A stretch of 64,000 nt of DNA from Psychroflexus aestuariivivens (GTDB lineage Bacteria > Bacteroidota > Bacteroidia > Flavobacteriales > Flavobacteriaceae). Shown one piece after another: positions 44,230-51,053 of this stretch (its first letter is position 1; each line of letters opens with the position of its first letter). The DNA lies in contig NZ_RQVT01000018.1 of NCBI RefSeq assembly GCF_004010055.1, positions 62,001 through 126,000 on the forward strand, written 5' to 3'. Below the pieces are notes generated by a model. It ran no database searches and had not been told where the DNA came from. It was given only the letters and a program-made list of their open reading frames with translations. A program made the translations under genes and the position numbers.

Positions 44230-44760
44230 ATGGAAAAAACAATATCAGGAATTACACTAGAATGTATAAAAGGCGATATAGCAAGACAAAAAGATATCAA
44301 AGCTGTAGTAAATGCTGCAAATGCTGAACTTACAACAGGCGGTGGAGTAGCAGGTGCATTACATCAAGCTGCTGGAACTGGTTTGGAAGAAGAATGTAAG
44401 TCTTTGGCTCCAATCAAACCAGGTGAAGCTGTGATTACAGATGGTCATAAACTTCCTAATAAATATGTCATTCATTGCTTAGGACCTGTTTTTGGTCAAG
44501 ATCAACCTGAAAATGAAATTCTAGCGAAATGTTATCAAAATGTATTACAACTTTGTGAAAAACACAAAATAGAATCGGTTGCCTTCCCAGCTATATCTAC
44601 AGGTGCTTTTGGATATCCCATTCAGGATGCTACAGATGTCGCTTTTAAAACTATTTTGGAAATGATTCCCAAATTAGAATTTTTAGAAAAAATTCGGTTT
44701 GTACTCTATGCGGATAAAGATTTAGAGATTTATAAAGAAAATTTATTCCGTCATAGATGA
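44230..44760 (+). CDS. Macro domain protein (YmdB-like O-acetyl-ADP-ribose deacetylase)
   Basis: The 176-residue single macro domain binds ADP-ribose and in this clade removes the acetyl group from O-acetyl-ADP-ribose or ADP-ribose from proteins. The motifs are ITLECIKGDIARQ at the start, AVVNAANAELTTGGGVAGALHQAAG at about residues 25-49 and the catalytic/phosphate loop VAFPAISTGAFGYPIQDAT near 118-136. E. coli YmdB also modulates RNase III, but no such role is inferred here. It is a single gene in the accessory block. Confidence 0.93.
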   Translation: MEKTISGITLECIKGDIARQKDIKAVVNAANAELTTGGGVAGALHQAAGTGLEEECKSLAPIKPGEAVITDGHKLPNKYVIHCLGPVFGQDQPENEILAKCYQNVLQLCEKHKIESVAFPAISTGAFGYPIQDATDVAFKTILEMIPKLEFLEKIRFVLYADKDLEIYKENLFRHR

Positions 44761-44902
44761 GCAAGTTTTTTTTAAATTTAAGTTTTAGCCAATCTAATAT
44801 TCAAACTATTTATTTGAATTAAAATGTGATTCAAGTTTATATTAATTTTCGCAGATTGTTACCAACATCTTTTCATTTGAAAAATAACTGTATATTCAAA
44901 AC

Positions 44903-45925
44903 ATGAGTTTACTCTTAGCCATTTCAATTTTCATAATTTCTACAATTATTATCATATTTGCTGGTACAACGTTGACAAAATATGCCGATCAACTTGCAAA
45001 TAAAACTGGAATAGGTCAAGCATTTGTAGGTGCTGTTTTTTTGGGTGGAGTGACTTCAATTGCAGGTATAATCACTTCAGTATCTTCGGCTTATAATAAT
45101 CATCCTGAACTAGCAATTAGCAATGCAATCGGTGGCATTGCGGCGCAGACAATTTTTCTGTCTATAGCAGATATTTCGTATAGAAAGATAAATTTAGAAC
45201 ATGCTTCAGCATCTTTAGCAAACCTGATGCAAGGTGTCTTATTGATCGGCTTATTAACACTTGTTATTTTAGGTATAGTAAGTCCTAACTTCACAGTTTT
45301 CAATATTCATCCTATATCTTACATTATTATTATTGTGTATTTAGTTGGATCAAGAATGATTGCAGTAGCCAAAGAAAAACCAATGTGGAATCCCAAAATA
45401 ACAGTTTCTACAGTAGAAGATAAACCAGATAAAGAAGCTATCGAAGATATAAATTTGAAGAACCTTATAATTAAATTCGTATTATTATCTGTTCTTGTGG
45501 GCGGATCGGGTTATGCAATTGCAATGTCTGGAATCACAATTTCGAATGAAACTGATTTAGGTGAAGGTTTTGTAGGATCCTTAATGACTGCTGTAGCAAC
45601 ATCTTTACCCGAACTTATAGTAACATTGGCAGCTGTAAGACAAAAGGCATTAGCACTGGCAGTAGGCAATGTTATTGGCGGTAATTCTTTCGATGTACTT
45701 TTTGTTGCATTTTCAGATATAGCCTATCAGGATGGAAGCATTTTACACAACATTCAAACCGATCAATCATTTATTATTGCACTAACGATGCTAATGGTTA
45801 GTGTGTTGGTAATGGGATTGTTGCATAGACAAAGAAAAGGAATTGCTAATATCGGTTGGGAAAGTACTTTGATTTTGGCACTTTACATAATTGGAAATAT
45901 ATTCTTGTATTTCTTTTTTTCTTAA
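44903..45925 (+). CDS. Calcium/cation antiporter family (CaCA) membrane protein
   Basis: The 340-residue protein has about ten transmembrane helices in two inverted halves, as in Na+/Ca2+ exchangers. The alpha-2 repeat GFVGSLMTAVATSLPELIV, near residues 223-241, has the full Thr-Ser-Leu-Pro-Glu motif. The alpha-1 repeat near residues 40-60 reads AVFLGGVTSIAGIITSV, where the usual Pro-Glu is replaced by Ala-Gly, so one ion-binding Glu is missing. The GNVIGGNSFDVLFVA motif follows alpha-2. Ion preference is therefore uncertain. It is a lone gene. Confidence 0.88.
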   Translation: MSLLLAISIFIISTIIIIFAGTTLTKYADQLANKTGIGQAFVGAVFLGGVTSIAGIITSVSSAYNNHPELAISNAIGGIAAQTIFLSIADISYRKINLEHASASLANLMQGVLLIGLLTLVILGIVSPNFTVFNIHPISYIIIIVYLVGSRMIAVAKEKPMWNPKITVSTVEDKPDKEAIEDINLKNLIIKFVLLSVLVGGSGYAIAMSGITISNETDLGEGFVGSLMTAVATSLPELIVTLAAVRQKALALAVGNVIGGNSFDVLFVAFSDIAYQDGSILHNIQTDQSFIIALTMLMVSVLVMGLLHRQRKGIANIGWESTLILALYIIGNIFLYFFFS

Positions 45926-46074
45926 ATAAATCCCAAAGTGATTTTTAAGCCTTAACTTCCTAAGTTTTATTTTTAAATTTAGAATTGTTCATTCAAATCG
46001 TAAATCTGTTATGCGTTTATAAACAGTAGATTAATTTAAATAATATTTATCTAAAAATAAACAATAAAAATAAA

Positions 46075-47919
46075 ATGCGTAAAATATCTGAGTTAACAGA
46101 GGAATCTATTAAACAGATTTTAACAATTCTTGAAGATGAAGGTGAAATTAGCGCTTCACTTCCAGGAAATGGATTAATTCATATTGAAGATAATTTGCCC
46201 TATTTGGTAGTTTATAGAGCAAGAAAAAATGATCCTGGCACAAAAAGATTAATTATAAGTGAAGCTTCATATCTTTTAATTGGGAATGAGAGTTTTGAAA
46301 ATTATCGGAAACTAGTCCATGCTCTTGCAAATACGCTAAGCGGTAATTTCAAATCTTATATGATTTTTGAAATTTATACAGGTCTTTCTAGAAATACATT
46401 TACAATAAAAGCACCAGTTCAAAAAATAAGTAGCACGGTTGATGTCTTAGAAAAGGGTTTGAATAATATAAATAAAGAATATTCAGGCCTCGATGTAAAG
46501 ACCGAAATAAAAGATACGCCCCATCGACAAAAAGAAGGAGATAGAGAGCTTTTAAGTATCGAGGAAGCTAAACGTTCTGGATCAGTGGTTGTTGGCCTCG
46601 AAATCCCAGCAGTTTACCGTGATGAAAGTAATAAAGTTTACCCTGTTTTTTTAAGAGAGTTTAAGGATTATCTTATAAGTTGTATACATAAAGCAATTTT
46701 TGATTATGTGCGTATCCAGACTACCAGTGGAGTTGAAAGCCATTTAGCATTAGGTCGAAGACACCTGAAAGAAAAGGTCTTTGAGATTGACAAAGCTTTG
46801 GCAAGCATAGAAAAATCATATCAATTTTTATGGCTAGTTTCCCCAGCGAATATTAGAGATATAAAAAACACTTTCTTTGAAAATAATTTTGAAAAAGTTA
46901 TAGATTACCATTATCGCTTGCTTCCAATAGATCCTGATGTTTTAAAAAGAAAACTCTACAACCTCAAAATCGAAGATATTGATGATCCTGCCATGTCTCA
47001 TATTTTTAGAGAAAAGAGAGAAGAGTTGGACCAGCAAATTACAATGTTGAATGAACGCGGAACACCCAATTTCTTTTACAACAGTATCAGACTTTATAAA
47101 GGGATAACTCAAAAACTCAATCGCGAAGCCAAAGCAATTCTTGATGAAGTAAGTGAAACTGATGAAGAGAACGAAGGTGTCAAAATAAATGCTGAAGATT
47201 TTGGAGCATTAGCACGCAAAGAATTTGATAATTTCACAAAACAGGATAGTAGCTTCAAAAGTAAAGTTCACATAAGAAAAGATGTGAATATTATAATGGT
47301 GAATAAGGGTGAGCTTTATATACCTTCAGATTACAAAATGCTCAAAATTGAGGCTAATGCCTTGATTCAGCATGAAGTTGGGACTCATATTTTAACTTAT
47401 CACAATGGAACTTCTCAACCCTTGGAATTATTGAGTGGTGGTTTAGCAGATTACGATCCGCTTCAGGAAGGACTTGCAGTGATGTCTGAATTTATGGTAA
47501 ATGGACTTACTGCAAATAGATTGAGAACATTAGCAGGTAGGGTAATTGCTGGTTCAGCGAGATTAGAAGGTGCAAATTTTATTGAAATTTTCAGATTGTT
47601 AAAAATGAACTATGGATTCTCTGCCCAGAGAGCTTTCAATATTACATCCAGAATTATGCAAGGTGGAGGCTTCTTGAAAGACATAATTTATTTAAAAGGA
47701 CTAGTTCAACTTAGGGAGCATCTTCAAAATAAAGGAGATTATGAATCTTTACTCTCAGGAAAGTTTGCATTACAGCACACAGAAATTATTAAAGAATTAA
47801 CTGAAAGAGAAGTGTTGATGTCAGGGGTCTTAAAACCAAGTTATTTATCCACTCAAAATTTTAAAGAAAAAATTAAATTAATCAGAGATGGGCTACCCAT
47901 CTCAAAAATGATAACATAA
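46075..47919 (+). CDS. QEGLA-motif metallopeptidase-like protein (DUF1704)
   Basis: This 614-residue protein belongs to DUF1704, named flavohaemoglobin expression-modulating QEGLA motif proteins; eukaryotic relatives include the tubulin tyrosine carboxypeptidase MATCAP. The zinc motif ALIQHEVGTHILTYHNG gives His-Glu-x-x-x-His near residue 433, and the name motif DPLQEGLAVMSEFM lies near residue 463. The N-terminal ~200 residues are a separate domain of unknown fold. It overlaps the ATP-grasp gene by one base and begins a three-gene cassette, suggesting peptide-bond chemistry on a peptide-like substrate. Confidence 0.88.
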   Translation: MRKISELTEESIKQILTILEDEGEISASLPGNGLIHIEDNLPYLVVYRARKNDPGTKRLIISEASYLLIGNESFENYRKLVHALANTLSGNFKSYMIFEIYTGLSRNTFTIKAPVQKISSTVDVLEKGLNNINKEYSGLDVKTEIKDTPHRQKEGDRELLSIEEAKRSGSVVVGLEIPAVYRDESNKVYPVFLREFKDYLISCIHKAIFDYVRIQTTSGVESHLALGRRHLKEKVFEIDKALASIEKSYQFLWLVSPANIRDIKNTFFENNFEKVIDYHYRLLPIDPDVLKRKLYNLKIEDIDDPAMSHIFREKREELDQQITMLNERGTPNFFYNSIRLYKGITQKLNREAKAILDEVSETDEENEGVKINAEDFGALARKEFDNFTKQDSSFKSKVHIRKDVNIIMVNKGELYIPSDYKMLKIEANALIQHEVGTHILTYHNGTSQPLELLSGGLADYDPLQEGLAVMSEFMVNGLTANRLRTLAGRVIAGSARLEGANFIEIFRLLKMNYGFSAQRAFNITSRIMQGGGFLKDIIYLKGLVQLREHLQNKGDYESLLSGKFALQHTEIIKELTEREVLMSGVLKPSYLSTQNFKEKIKLIRDGLPISKMIT

Positions 47920-48968
47920 TGAAAATTTGCTTTGTATTAAATGATATTGAAAACGAGAGGTTTGGAACTTCAATTATGTTAATGACAACAGCCCACAATC
48001 GCGGGCATGAGGTTTATGCCATGGGAGTTGGAGATTTTAACTTTCAACACGGTGAGCCAATTACCATTAATAGTACTCAAGTGCCAAAAAATACCAATAC
48101 TAAATCTCCTCAAAAATTTCTGGAGGCTCTAAAAAGTTCAAAAGCACGTAAAAAAAATATTACTGCAAATACTCTGGATGTTCTTTTCATAAGGAACAAT
48201 CCGACAGAAGAAGAATCTGGACGTGGATGGGCAGAACATGCTGGAGTAGCTTTTGGAAAAATGATGCAACAGCAAGGTGTTTTGGTTCTAAACGATGCCT
48301 TTGCGCTTTCTCATGCTTTTATAGATAAACTTTATTTTGAAGAACTACCGAAGGAAATAAAACCCAACTCTCTAATTACCAGAAACAAACAGGATATTTT
48401 GAAGTTTTGGAAGGAAAATAACAAGAAGATTGTTTTAAAACCCTTAGAAGGTTCTGGTGGTCAAAATGTGTTTCTTATTGATGAAAATGAAAAAAACATC
48501 AATCAAATTATTGAAACCATAAGCCAAAACGGGTATATAATTGCACAAGAGTTTTTGCCTGAAGTTAAAAATGGTGATGTTAGAATACTTTTGGTAAATG
48601 GTCGAGTTATGGAAAAAGACGGTACACAAGCTATCATAAGACGCGTTAGTGGTGAAGGAGAATTTAGAAGTAATTTCGCACTTGGAGCCACAGCAGATAG
48701 TAGTGACCTTACCCCAGAAATGCAGCGCATTGTTGATTTGACAGCTCCAAAATTGATTAGTGATGGATTCTTTTTTGTTGGTTTGGATGTAGTCAAAGAC
48801 AAATTAATAGAAATCAATGTCCTGAGTCCAGGAGGCATGGAACATTTTGATGATATAGGTCTACCAGATTTCACTCCTTTTATAATTGAAGCTATAGAAC
48901 GAAAGGTTGAATATAAAAAACTATACGGTCATCAATTATCCAACAAAGAGATCGCAGGAATGCACTAA
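47919..48968 (+). CDS. ATP-grasp ligase of glutathione synthetase/RimK type
   Basis: The 349-residue protein has the GshB-like arrangement: an N-terminal Rossmann domain starting MKICFVLNDIE, then the ATP-grasp domain with VLKPLEGSGGQNVFLI near residue 170, GYIIAQEFLPEVKNGDVRILLVNG, and the metal-binding LIEINVLSPGG near residue 305. It would form an amide bond between a carboxylate and an amine, as in glutathione or gamma-glutamyl peptides. Its one-base overlap (TAATG) with the QEGLA gene and 25-base gap to the AstE-like gene place it in the middle of the cassette. It is not a classic glutathione pathway, since no GshA is near. Confidence 0.88.
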   Translation: MKICFVLNDIENERFGTSIMLMTTAHNRGHEVYAMGVGDFNFQHGEPITINSTQVPKNTNTKSPQKFLEALKSSKARKKNITANTLDVLFIRNNPTEEESGRGWAEHAGVAFGKMMQQQGVLVLNDAFALSHAFIDKLYFEELPKEIKPNSLITRNKQDILKFWKENNKKIVLKPLEGSGGQNVFLIDENEKNINQIIETISQNGYIIAQEFLPEVKNGDVRILLVNGRVMEKDGTQAIIRRVSGEGEFRSNFALGATADSSDLTPEMQRIVDLTAPKLISDGFFFVGLDVVKDKLIEINVLSPGGMEHFDDIGLPDFTPFIIEAIERKVEYKKLYGHQLSNKEIAGMH

Positions 48969-48993
48969 TCTTAAAATAGTAAATTAACAAATT

Positions 48994-49914
48994 ATGAGTA
49001 AACATTCAGATCAACACATATCTAGAGTAATTGGAAAATATACGAGTAACAAAGAAGGACCATTACTTTTTGTCACTGCAGGAATTCACGGTAACGAACC
49101 TAGTGGTGTAGAAGCTTTAGAAGAAGTTTTCAAACAATTAGAGAAAACCAAACCTGAAATTAAAGGGACTTTGGTTGGGGTTTCTGGAAACCAGAAAGCG
49201 CTCAATAAAAATAAGCGTTATATAGACGAGGATCTCAATCGAGTATGGACTAAACAAAACATAGAACAGGAAATCTCTGAAACCCATGAACAAAAAGAAA
49301 TGTGGGAAATTATTAAGACTTTAGAAGAATTCCCAGAAGAAAACTTTACCAAACGCTATTTTCTAGATTGTCATACCACATCCTCACCAAGCCTCCCATA
49401 TATCTCAGTTCAGGTTGTGAATGACAATGATGAATGGGCACACAAATTCCCTACTTATATTATTCGAGGGTTTAGTGATATAATTACAGGTGATATTGAC
49501 CATTATTTGAGTCGGATAGGTATTACAGGATTTGTTTTTGAAGCTGGACAACATGAAGACGAAACTTCAGTAGAAAATCATGAAGGTGTGATTTGGTTAG
49601 CTTTAAAAGAAGCATGCGAGCTCGATCTTTCTAAGATTGAAACATACCCAGAATGTGTCAATAGATTTGCGAAAAAGAATGCACCAGAGCAGAAAACTTT
49701 TGAATTAATCCATCGTCACGGTCTTGAAGATTCCGATATTTTTGAGATGGAACCTGGCTACGAAAATTTCCAAAAAATAAGTAAAGGAGAACTTTTAGCA
49801 AAGCAAAACGGTAATGAGGTGAGAAGTAAATGGGATGCTAGAATCTTTATGCCACTCTATCAATCTCAGGGTAATGATGCTTTTTTTGTGATTGAAGAAG
49901 TAGAAGGGAAGTGA
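48994..49914 (+). CDS. Succinylglutamate desuccinylase/aspartoacylase family protein
   Basis: The 306-residue protein is an M14-type zinc hydrolase of the AstE/AspA family that deacylates N-acyl amino acids. The zinc motif TAGIHGNEPSGVEAL is at about residues 28-42 and the second ligand is in FLDCHTTSS near residue 124. GITGFVFEAGQHEDE near 177 carries the catalytic Glu. The C-terminal ~100 residues form the lid and beta domain (YENFQKISKGELLAKQNG). It lies at the end of the QEGLA/ATP-grasp cassette and may remove an acyl group from the product or its precursor. Confidence 0.88.
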   Translation: MSKHSDQHISRVIGKYTSNKEGPLLFVTAGIHGNEPSGVEALEEVFKQLEKTKPEIKGTLVGVSGNQKALNKNKRYIDEDLNRVWTKQNIEQEISETHEQKEMWEIIKTLEEFPEENFTKRYFLDCHTTSSPSLPYISVQVVNDNDEWAHKFPTYIIRGFSDIITGDIDHYLSRIGITGFVFEAGQHEDETSVENHEGVIWLALKEACELDLSKIETYPECVNRFAKKNAPEQKTFELIHRHGLEDSDIFEMEPGYENFQKISKGELLAKQNGNEVRSKWDARIFMPLYQSQGNDAFFVIEEVEGK

Positions 49915-50053
49915 TTATATTTTTGAAAACTAAAGGTAAAGTTTAGTAAAGCATAAATATTAAATTTTGCATTAACCTAAACTAAATGAATACATTTATC
50001 TAAGAAAAAAAAAGCTAATTTTTTCTTTTATGATGATATCGAAAATCAAATAG

Positions 50054-50827
50054 ATGGAATATTTATCGTCGGTTTTTTCAGATGTGGAGTTAAATGTTAG
50101 CATTTTATTATTTGTTTTAGGAATTGCAGCATTTTTGATCTCAACGATTTCAGGCGGTGGAGGCGCTTTGGTTTTAGTTCCATTTCTAAACTGGATGATA
50201 GGTGTAAGTAATACTGCGCCAGTTCTTAATTTAGGAACTTTTATCGGTCGTCCTGCCCGTTTAGTTATCTTTTGGAAACATATAAGTTGGAAAGTTTGTC
50301 TTTATTATGCTCCAGCAGCTATTTCTGGTGCATGGCTTGGTGCTTGGTTCTTCAACAATTTGAAAATTGAATGGCTTCAAATATTTATAGGTGTTTTTCT
50401 TGTAAGCACCATCTGGCAATATAAATTTGGAAATAAAAAGAGTTCATTCAAAGTAAAACTGTGGCATTTTATTCCTTTAGGCTTGTTGATTTCAACTTTA
50501 GGAACAATTATCGGCGCTTTAGGTCCAGTTCTCAATCCTTTTTATTTAAATCTTGGACTCGATAAAGAAAAACTCATTGCAACAAAGACGGCCAACTCAT
50601 TTCTAATGGGTATTTCACAAATTGGAAGTTATACTTTTTTTGGACTGTTAAGCGATCAATTTTGGATTTATGGAATAGTTTTAGGTATAGGAGCAACTAT
50701 TGGGAATATAATTGGAAAGAAATTTCTTTCACAAATGAAAAGCAAAACCTTCCTCAGGTTTGTGATTGCGATAATGGTTATTAGCGGTGTGTTATTGGTT
50801 TTCGACCAAATTCAAAAGTTTTTTTAA
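50054..50827 (+). CDS. TSUP-family sulfite exporter TauE/SafE-like permease
   Basis: The 257-residue protein has about eight transmembrane helices in two similar halves. The start of the first repeat, ISTISGGGGALVLVPFLNWMIG near residues 33-54, and the second repeat TLGTIIGALGPVLNPFYLNLG near residues 155-175 fit the 4-toluene sulfonate uptake permease (TSUP) family. Substrates in this family are sulfur- or sulfonate-containing anions, but the assignment is broad. It is the last plus-strand gene of the accessory block. Confidence 0.85.
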   Translation: MEYLSSVFSDVELNVSILLFVLGIAAFLISTISGGGGALVLVPFLNWMIGVSNTAPVLNLGTFIGRPARLVIFWKHISWKVCLYYAPAAISGAWLGAWFFNNLKIEWLQIFIGVFLVSTIWQYKFGNKKSSFKVKLWHFIPLGLLISTLGTIIGALGPVLNPFYLNLGLDKEKLIATKTANSFLMGISQIGSYTFFGLLSDQFWIYGIVLGIGATIGNIIGKKFLSQMKSKTFLRFVIAIMVISGVLLVFDQIQKFF

Positions 50828-50848
50828 TAGAATAAAATGAAAAATTAG

Positions 50849-51053
50849 TCAAATAAGCCATCTTCTATAATTTTCTGAACGATATCTATTAGAACTGTAT
50901 TAAAAGTGATTATTACGTTTAAAAATATTTGATATTCTTTTGTCGAATCAAAAACTGAAGTTCAATCGGCTTCGAAGTAAAATTTTAGTGATTTGTATTA
51001 CTAATCTAAATTTTTGCCAACTATCAAGCTTTAAACTTCTCCTCAATATTCAT
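50849..51053 (-). pseudogene. udk: Decayed 3' fragment of a uridine kinase gene (udk)
   Basis: This stretch reads as a degenerate copy of the last ~200 bases of udk, oriented like the intact gene at 52139-52747. A run of 17 identical bases occurs at 50874-50890 and 52165-52181, and further blocks (CTTTTGTCG, ATCTAAAT, TTCAT) keep the same order. In translation, the residues NTVLIDIVQKIIEDGLF match NTVAIDIVQTIIKERLI of the intact Udk C-terminus. A one-base insertion breaks the frame just before it and the stop codon is lost. No start or P-loop part remains, so it cannot be functional. It lies at the right end of the accessory block. Confidence 0.82.

What the first reader, a model, noticed from the sequence alone, without database searches (positions are those of the whole stretch)
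46075..49914. QEGLA peptidase-like, ATP-grasp and AstE cassette
Three genes with a one-base overlap and a 25-base gap encode a DUF1704 zinc peptidase relative, a glutathione-synthetase-like ATP-grasp ligase and an aspartoacylase/AstE-type deacylase. Together they could make, trim and deacylate a peptide-like or N-acyl amino acid compound. The DUF1704 family has a eukaryotic member that removes the C-terminal residue of tubulin. No product is known for this combination.
Basis: inference. Interest (0 to 1): 0.55.

Follow-up and report, generated by a model that had tools for sequence, protein, structure and literature searches.

The report
Peptide ligase with two paired hydrolases
Three adjacent bacterial genes, one of them a relative of the human enzyme that trims tubulin tails, form a conserved unit that probably joins an amino acid onto a small acidic peptide and takes that peptide apart again, though the compound itself is unknown.

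Summary
In detail: a MATCAP/DUF1704 zinc peptidase, a glutathione-synthetase-like ATP-grasp ligase and an AstE/AspA deacylase lie in one tight run. It is not local. In 397 genomes of the family, 53 of 53 long MATCAP genes have this ATP-grasp beside them, 55 of 55 such ATP-grasp genes and 34 of 34 such AstE genes lie beside a long MATCAP. In 120 distinct loci with enough flank, 120 have the ATP-grasp; 70 have AstE, 35 an FGase (N-formylglutamate-amidohydrolase family), 15 neither, 0 both. The FGase form occurs in seven phyla, so AstE probably replaced FGase. Residues 1-230 of the MATCAP protein are a dead FGase-like domain. The same genome holds RimB-RimK-AstE and ATP-grasp-GCS2-FGase operons. 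Best reading: a ligase, a C-terminal eraser and an N-acyl or last-bond amidohydrolase on one small acidic peptide; substrate unknown, no activity shown. Eukaryotic MATCAP also undoes ATP-grasp work (TTL/TTLL), so these operons may be a bacterial counterpart of that pair. New variant of a known kind (compare RimK/RimB).

The parts
46075..47919 (+). Gene 1: long-type MATCAP/DUF1704 (QEGLA) protein, 614 aa
   Evidence: ORF; PF08014 265 bits, residues 266-598; AlphaFold2 model, mean pLDDT 88.7, pTM 0.83
46075..46770 (+). Front domain of gene 1, about residues 1-232: FGase-like fold that has lost the FGase metal ligands
   Evidence: hhalign of the domain profile with 48 FGase domains: probability 95.4, E 1.7e-8, 206 columns; FGase structure 2q7s Z 11.3, rmsd 3.0, 163 residues, tied with carboxypeptidase-A-like chains; ligand positions lost. 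Pfam FGase itself did not hit the window protein
46828..47910 (+). MATCAP metallocarboxypeptidase domain, residues 252-612
   Evidence: Human MATCAP 7z6s Z 22.6 and 7z5g Z 22.5, rmsd 3.1, 290 residues, 19% identity; profile search 7z5g E 4.8e-10
47371..47388 (+). HExxxH zinc motif, residues 433-438 (HEVGTH)
   Evidence: H433, E434 and H438 each kept in 125 of 125 long-type proteins
47467..47469 (+). E465 of the QEG motif, probable third zinc ligand
   Evidence: Kept in 125 of 125; third ligand in an EEG motif described for TMCP1/KIAA0895L (PMC10499314, passage)
47919..48968 (+). Gene 2: glutathione-synthetase-like ATP-grasp ligase, 349 aa, starts on the last base of gene 1
   Evidence: E. coli GshB 1gsa E 3e-35; K137, K174, D290, E298 and N300 kept in 126-128 of 128 relatives
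48994..49914 (+). Gene 3: AstE/AspA-family zinc amidohydrolase, 306 aa
   Evidence: AlphaFold2 pLDDT 91.9; closest solved folds are AstE 2g9d Z 23.9, DoeB 6twm 22.5, aspartoacylase 4mri 20.3, CphZ 8eip 18.9; H32, E35, H127, N82, R83, E183 kept in 70 of 70

Best explanation
The trio is one functional unit: a Flavobacteriaceae-centred variant of a bacterial operon FGase - MATCAP - ATP-grasp, in which an AstE-type amidohydrolase stands in for FGase. Proposed working: (1) the ATP-grasp enzyme uses ATP to activate the C-terminal carboxylate of a small acidic (Glu/Asp-containing) acyl-amino acid or peptide and joins an amino acid to it; (2) the MATCAP enzyme, a zinc carboxypeptidase, removes the C-terminal residue again; its dead FGase-like front domain probably serves as a binding or docking domain; (3) AstE cleaves the N-acyl bond, or the last peptide or isopeptide bond, of the remaining acidic residue. 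So it is a ligase with two erasers on one peptide, and the balance between them sets the amount or length of that peptide. Shown: gene identities, intact active-site residues, linkage, the AstE/FGase alternation, loss of the FGase ligands in the front domain. Inferred: shared substrate, acidic substrate, direction of each step. Not shown at all: the identity of the substrate, any activity, and the cellular place (no signal peptide tool was run).
For: Linkage both ways in 397 genomes of the family: 53 of 53 long MATCAP genes have this ATP-grasp beside them and 55 of 55 such ATP-grasp genes have a long MATCAP; 34 of 34 AstE hits of this subfamily lie beside a long MATCAP. 120 distinct loci with enough flank: ATP-grasp 120, AstE 70, FGase 35, neither 15, both 0. 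FGase form in seven phyla and on rhizobial replicons. Precedents in this very genome: RimB-RimK-AstE (L200) and ATP-grasp-GCS2-FGase (L174). The nearest AstE paralog (about 400 aa) sits beside a CBS-domain protein with weak GCS-ligase similarity in 17 of 17 loci. Acidic substrates are the theme of the families: AstE, AspA, FGase (and family names), poly-Glu for RimK/RimB (PMC11957791 abstract), Glu removal by the eukaryotic MATCAP relatives (PMC10499314 passages). AstE-fold CphZ cleaves beta-Asp-Arg (title of 8eip).
Against: No activity, ligand or mutant is known. 15 of 120 loci have neither AstE nor FGase nearby, so the third enzyme is not always in place; 10 of these 15 lie in genomes with a second MATCAP match. 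The alternation of AstE and FGase rests on few events: AstE is one side of one branch, but that branch has a support of only 16, and two long-branch rows (L038 and one more, joined to the rest) are flagged. Not all MATCAP relatives have a ligase: L019 and the divergent L023 have neither partner, a Vibrio fusion protein has none annotated beside it, nor has a Pseudoalteromonas relative. The two extra Gw copies and the second ligase (Gs) in FGase loci are not explained.
Confidence: 0.55

Rival explanations
1. A protein-tagging system: the ATP-grasp enzyme adds residues to the C-terminus of a protein, MATCAP removes them and AstE finishes or edits the tag, as RimK and RimB do on ribosomal protein RpsF.
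For: RimK ligates and RimB removes glutamates on RpsF (PMC11957791 abstract; PMC12239564 passages); eukaryotic MATCAP/TMCP enzymes act on tubulin tails and remove polyglutamylation (PMC10499314 passages); the MATCAP domain superposes on human MATCAP; RimB-RimK-AstE exists in this genome.
Against: The ATP-grasp is of the glutathione-synthetase kind, whose known substrates are small peptides; AstE/AspA and FGase relatives act on small N-acyl amino acids; no target protein is encoded in or near the unit, and the unit sits in different surroundings in different genera.
Confidence: 0.2
2. A one-way biosynthetic pathway: the ATP-grasp joins an amino acid to an N-acyl-protected acid, MATCAP trims, AstE removes the protecting acyl group and a free peptide metabolite is released.
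For: N-acyl protection with removal by an AstE-like or M20-type hydrolase is established chemistry for LysX-type ATP-grasp pathways (recalled); all three active sites are intact.
Against: No acyltransferase was recognised next to the genes in the window, and the genes flanking the trio differ between genera; a carboxypeptidase in the unit argues for turnover as much as for synthesis.
Confidence: 0.15
3. Glutathione or a close thiol peptide: gene 2 is simply glutathione synthetase and the hydrolases recycle it.
For: NF009110 'glutathione synthetase' subfamily passes its cut-off; best solved relative is E. coli GshB.
Against: Both glutathione synthase equivalog models fail (TIGR01380 190.6 of 299.05; NF003573 205.8 of 272). 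The only GCS2-family ligase found in the genome lies in another operon and is under every NCBIfam cut-off. PF04262 (GshA) was not searched.
Confidence: 0.07
4. Three independent genes that happen to be neighbours.
For: The flanking genes AI-2E, macro and Na/Ca exchanger also recur in the window's genus.
Against: The flanks change between genera while the trio stays; counts.
Confidence: 0.03

Closest known systems
FGase - QEGLA/MATCAP - 'glutathione synthase' operon (annotated but unnamed; e.g. Pararhizobium, Sinorhizobium plasmids)
   Same: Same long MATCAP protein with the same front domain and same ATP-grasp gene just downstream
   Different: An FGase gene lies upstream; in the window an AstE gene lies downstream instead
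RimK/RimB (RimABK) polyglutamylation system (PMC11957791 abstract, PMC12239564 passages)
   Same: ATP-grasp ligase together with a peptidase that undoes it; in this genome it is even followed by an AstE gene
   Different: RimB is a retropepsin-like aspartic peptidase, not a zinc carboxypeptidase; RimK is a different ATP-grasp family; its target includes a ribosomal protein
Eukaryotic tubulin tyrosination cycle: TTL/TTLL (ATP-grasp) and MATCAP/TMCP (PMC10499314, PMC13269789 passages)
   Same: MATCAP fold, HExxxH plus Glu site; ligase/carboxypeptidase logic
   Different: Eukaryotic proteins lack the FGase-like front domain in the solved chains matched here; substrate is tubulin; the ligase belongs to the TTL family (recalled), not the glutathione-synthetase family
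NAAG cycle of mammals: RIMKLA/B, glutamate carboxypeptidase II, aspartoacylase (recalled, no call)
   Same: ATP-grasp ligase, zinc carboxypeptidase and AstE/AspA-family deacylase on one N-acyl acidic dipeptide
   Different: Carboxypeptidase of another fold, no operon, no known bacterial version of it here
Cyanophycin turnover: ATP-grasp synthetase and CphZ dipeptide hydrolase (8eip title; the rest recalled)
   Same: AstE/AspA-fold enzyme cleaves a dipeptide left from an ATP-grasp product
   Different: Other ligase family, polymer substrate, no MATCAP

Membership tests
MATCAP / PF08014 | Family model over cut-off | tested here: met
   265 bits, cut-off 27
MATCAP / PF08014 | HExxxH and a third Glu ligand | tested here: met
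   125 of 125 long-type proteins
MATCAP / PF08014 | Fold of human MATCAP | tested here: met
   Z 22.6, rmsd 3.1, 290 residues; Foldseek E 4.7e-8
MATCAP / PF08014 | Carboxypeptidase activity | not testable with these tools
   No assay
TIGR02421 QEGLA hypothetical equivalog | Score over 338.65 | tested here: not met
   300 bits
Glutathione synthetase (GshB equivalog) | Equivalog score over cut-off | tested here: not met
   TIGR01380 190.6 of 299.05; NF003573 205.8 of 272
PRK12458 / NF009110 subfamily | Score over 408 | tested here: met
   427.3 bits
AstE (succinylglutamate desuccinylase) equivalog | Score over 305.65 | tested here: not met
   66.2 bits
AstE/AspA superfamily PF24827 | Model over cut-off, H-x2-E ... 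H zinc ligands | tested here: met
   71.5 of 25 bits; H32, E35, H127 in 70 of 70
Active FGase (front domain of gene 1) | HxGH, DxNR and DxH motifs | tested here: not met
   47-48 of 48 FGases keep them; in the front domain position 47 is Y or F in 121 of 125 and position 101 is Y, W or F in 115 of 125, DxNR stretch missing
FGase-like fold (front domain of gene 1) | Homology to FGase | tested here: met
   hhalign probability 95.4, E 1.7e-8; structure match tied with carboxypeptidase-A-like folds
RimK/RimB system | RimK-family ATP-grasp and retropepsin-like peptidase | tested here: not met
   Gene 2: TIGR00768 78.1 of 143.4; gene 1 is a zinc peptidase

The most novel reading that the evidence does not exclude
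Bacterial MATCAP enzymes are the dedicated erasers of ATP-grasp peptide ligases, and this operon family is a bacterial counterpart, perhaps a source, of the ligase/carboxypeptidase pair that writes and erases the tubulin C-terminal code; the window's variant edits a C-terminal tag on a protein or peptide and has exchanged its third enzyme (FGase for AstE) without changing the job.
Probability: 0.15. Interest if true: 0.85.

Novelty: new variant of a known kind. Interest (0 to 1): 0.5.

Why it matters
MATCAP/TMCP enzymes were recognised as tubulin detyrosinases and deglutamylases only recently, and no function was found in print for the bacterial members in the searches made here (open-licence papers only). 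A tight pairing of those members with one ATP-grasp ligase gives a direct handle: express the pair and find what is joined and cut. It also offers a testable evolutionary idea, that the ligase/carboxypeptidase logic of the tubulin code has a bacterial counterpart. The exchange of FGase for AstE narrows the chemistry to an acyl or peptide bond on an acidic amino acid.

Tried and rejected
Glutathione synthetase: rejected as the default because both glutathione synthase equivalog models fail; PF04262 (GshA) was not searched, so the absence of the glutathione route is not shown. Chance neighbours: rejected on linkage. 'AstE proper' (arginine succinyltransferase pathway): equivalog fails. Regulatory RNA or clear promoter/terminator: Rfam gave 0 matches over 44700-51000; 18 promoter-like sites against 16.1 expected and 4 terminator-like sites against 2.4, none on + for terminators; these scans do not cover Bacteroidota promoters, so nothing is concluded.

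Led nowhere: the search for related loci with the single window protein found 105 pattern stretches and no relative; repeated with an alignment it gave 592 stretches, 590 relatives, of which only the best 80 were kept, so that sample leans to near relatives. Paper searches: DUF1704 with ATP-grasp 0 papers; QEGLA 1 paper; DUF1704 1 paper, on Plasmodium, listing only; FGase with glutathione synthetase or synthase 0 and 0; COG3930/COG3931 1 paper, listing only; RimK with desuccinylase 2 papers, both unrelated by title. Iyer et al. 2009, which from recall treats ATP-grasp ligases with linked peptidases, is not held; whether it already describes this operon could not be checked, and that is the main risk to the novelty claim.

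Structure lists: the front domain's best solved match (FGase 2q7s, Z 11.3) is within 1 Z of a carboxypeptidase (2c1c, 10.6), so structure alone does not name it; FGase is absent from the 50 rows shown for the AstE model, which proves nothing.

Rows dropped before counts: 16 duplicate loci, places under 250 bits (among them L023) and 7 of 127 long-type places with short flanks (one of them, L136, ends 24 bases after MATCAP and shows no ATP-grasp; 4 show the ATP-grasp with no third gene, 2 the ATP-grasp with FGase). Of 18 regions fetched for the 400-aa paralog, 17 hold it; L199 was taken at a guessed place and holds none. L201 was fetched and not used. Script one search stopped with an error at L039; went over the same loci again.
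Full report
Observation. The window is G000:C57:62001-126000 of a 3.1 Mb genome.

Spread. In the genus, 3 of 26 other genomes hold the gene 1 relative at 72-73% identity, and in these three the trio lies at the same place, after the AI-2E gene. Outside the genus the surroundings differ: in Salegentibacter, whose gene 1 is the most similar found (77%), none of the window's other genes lies beside the trio. In 397 genomes drawn from the family, 53 long-type MATCAP genes stand out (744 bits or more, the next at 282). All 53 have the ATP-grasp beside them and all 55 ATP-grasp hits at E 1e-80 or better have a long MATCAP beside them; the two surplus ATP-grasp genes are tandem copies in G666 and G814. 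The AstE profile gives 34 hits of 406 bits or more, all 34 beside a long MATCAP, in 24 of the sample's genus codes by my count; then a gap down to 307 bits, where a paralog of about 400 aa begins.

Two forms of one operon. I fetched and typed the neighbourhoods of all 53, of the 17 further PF08014 genes of a phylum-wide draw (19 of 395 genomes hold one), of relatives, and of 80 named loci. After removal of 16 duplicates, 127 long-type places remain, 120 with enough flank. ATP-grasp downstream on the same strand: 120 of 120. AstE within 4 kb: 70. FGase upstream on the same strand: 35. Neither: 15. Both: 0. Two of the 70 have AstE facing the other way (L038, L139). The FGase form is in seven phyla by record title (Bacteroidota, Balneolota, Planctomycetota, Acidobacteriota, Calditrichota, Verrucomicrobiota, Pseudomonadota; several are metagenome bins, and the Verrucomicrobiota and one other FGase locus have short flanks), and on rhizobial replicons. 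The AstE form is in Bacteroidota only, nearly all Flavobacteriaceae. So FGase first, AstE later is the likely order; the tree was not rooted. On the tree AstE is one side of a single branch, but with a support of 16 and with a long-branch warning for L038 and one more row, so two gains are possible. Of the 15 with neither, 10 lie in genomes with two or three MATCAP matches.

Short and fused MATCAP. In 15 of 16 short or fused-type places an FGase (separate gene or fused domain) and a second kind of ATP-grasp lie upstream, often near aroC; L019 has neither. The divergent L023, a Vibrio fusion and a Pseudoalteromonas relative have no ligase beside them. The strict pairing is therefore a property of the long type.

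The front domain. Residues 1-230 were unassigned by Pfam. Profile comparison with 48 FGase domains gives probability 95.4 and E 1.7e-8 over 206 columns. The AlphaFold2 model (pLDDT 88.7) matches FGase 2q7s there at Z 11.3, tied with carboxypeptidase-A-like folds. FGases keep H44, H47, D93, N95, R96, D153, H155 and E234 in 47 or 48 of 48; the front domain lacks the first histidine pair, the DxNR stretch and the DxH histidine, while R48 is kept in 125 of 125 and E99 in 124 of 125. It is a dead enzyme domain that is still under constraint, which suggests binding or docking. The back half is the MATCAP fold (7z6s Z 22.6; Foldseek E 4.7e-8) with its zinc site intact in 125 of 125.

The other two active sites. 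The AstE protein keeps H32, E35, H127, N82, R83 and E183 in 70 of 70, and its model matches AstE, DoeB, aspartoacylase and CphZ. That these are zinc and substrate ligands follows from the aspartoacylase family (residue roles recalled; alignment). The ATP-grasp keeps D290, E298 and N300, which align with the E. coli GshB metal site, in 126 of 128 (roles recalled).

Company in the same genome. Two more ligase/amidohydrolase runs exist: RimB (PF05618), RimK (NF007764 over cut-off) and AstE (PF24827) at L200 5352-7623; and RLAN ATP-grasp, GCS2 and FGase at L174 17-3374. The 400-aa AstE paralog of other Flavobacteriaceae lies beside a CBS-domain protein of about 616 aa in 17 of 17 loci; its ligase identity is weak (glutamate-cysteine ligase NF010041 E 1.4e-6, TIGR02050 E 4e-4, both far under cut-off; Pfam shows only CBS). 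So AstE and FGase recur as partners of carboxylate-amine ligases of different folds.

Outside evidence. In Photobacterium damselae a 'GshB' (A0J47_RS17020) and the next-numbered QEGLA protein (RS17025) rise 38.4-fold and 27.5-fold at 1% against 3% NaCl; a RimK rises 52-fold (PMC10308900, passages). In a related Photobacterium the ATP-grasp and the FGase-MATCAP fusion overlap by 23 bases. This is the short/fused type, not the window's type, and only hints at osmotic conditions. RimK/RimB gives the bacterial precedent for an ATP-grasp ligase with a co-transcribed eraser (PMC11957791 abstract; PMC12239564 passages). TMCP/MATCAP enzymes remove tyrosine and glutamates from tubulin tails (PMC10499314 passages); neither that paper's passages nor those of PMC13269789 discuss bacterial members.

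Mechanism and verdict. The most likely working is a ligase with two erasers on one small acidic peptide (confidence 0.55 for the whole; lower for the exact bond cut by AstE). Linkage, intact active sites, the dead front domain and the AstE/FGase alternation are shown by calls; common substrate, acidity and direction are inferred. It is a new variant of a known kind. Interest 0.5: the unit is real, widespread and makes an open question (what do bacterial MATCAP enzymes do?) directly testable, but the substrate is unknown and an older prediction (Iyer et al. 2009, recalled, not held) may cover part of it.

Noticed in passing
L200 5352-7623 (G000:C56, window's own genome): RimB-like protease, RimK and an AstE/AspA-family gene in one tight run; the third gene has no described role in the rim system in the passages seen.
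   Followed up: partly
L174 17-3374 (G000:C25, window's own genome): RLAN-type ATP-grasp, GCS2 ligase and FGase with overlapping ends: a third ligase/amidohydrolase operon in this genome.
   Followed up: partly
L182-L198: A 400-aa AstE paralog lies beside a 616-aa CBS-domain protein with weak glutamate-cysteine ligase similarity in 17 of 17 loci.
   Followed up: partly
L043, L044, L109, L112: Salinimicrobium-type loci carry two tandem copies of the ATP-grasp gene between MATCAP and AstE.
   Followed up: no
L020, L029, L032, L033, L047, L048 and others: FGase-type loci near aroC often include a rhodanese-domain gene and sometimes a small protein of about 110 aa without Pfam match; role unknown.
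   Followed up: no
L049, L051, L052, L054-L058, L062, L066: MATCAP and ATP-grasp without AstE or FGase, in genomes that hold further MATCAP copies; possibly a specialised paralogous pair.
   Followed up: no
L039 (G286, G+C-rich): Short peptide motifs such as 'LWRQR' and 'SGARG' recur in many reading frames of this stretch, as if a short dispersed DNA repeat were scattered through genes and gaps.
   Followed up: no
window 44230-44760: Macro-domain (ADP-ribose hydrolase type) gene upstream of the trio; also present in two of the three congeners, so probably incidental to the trio.
   Followed up: partly
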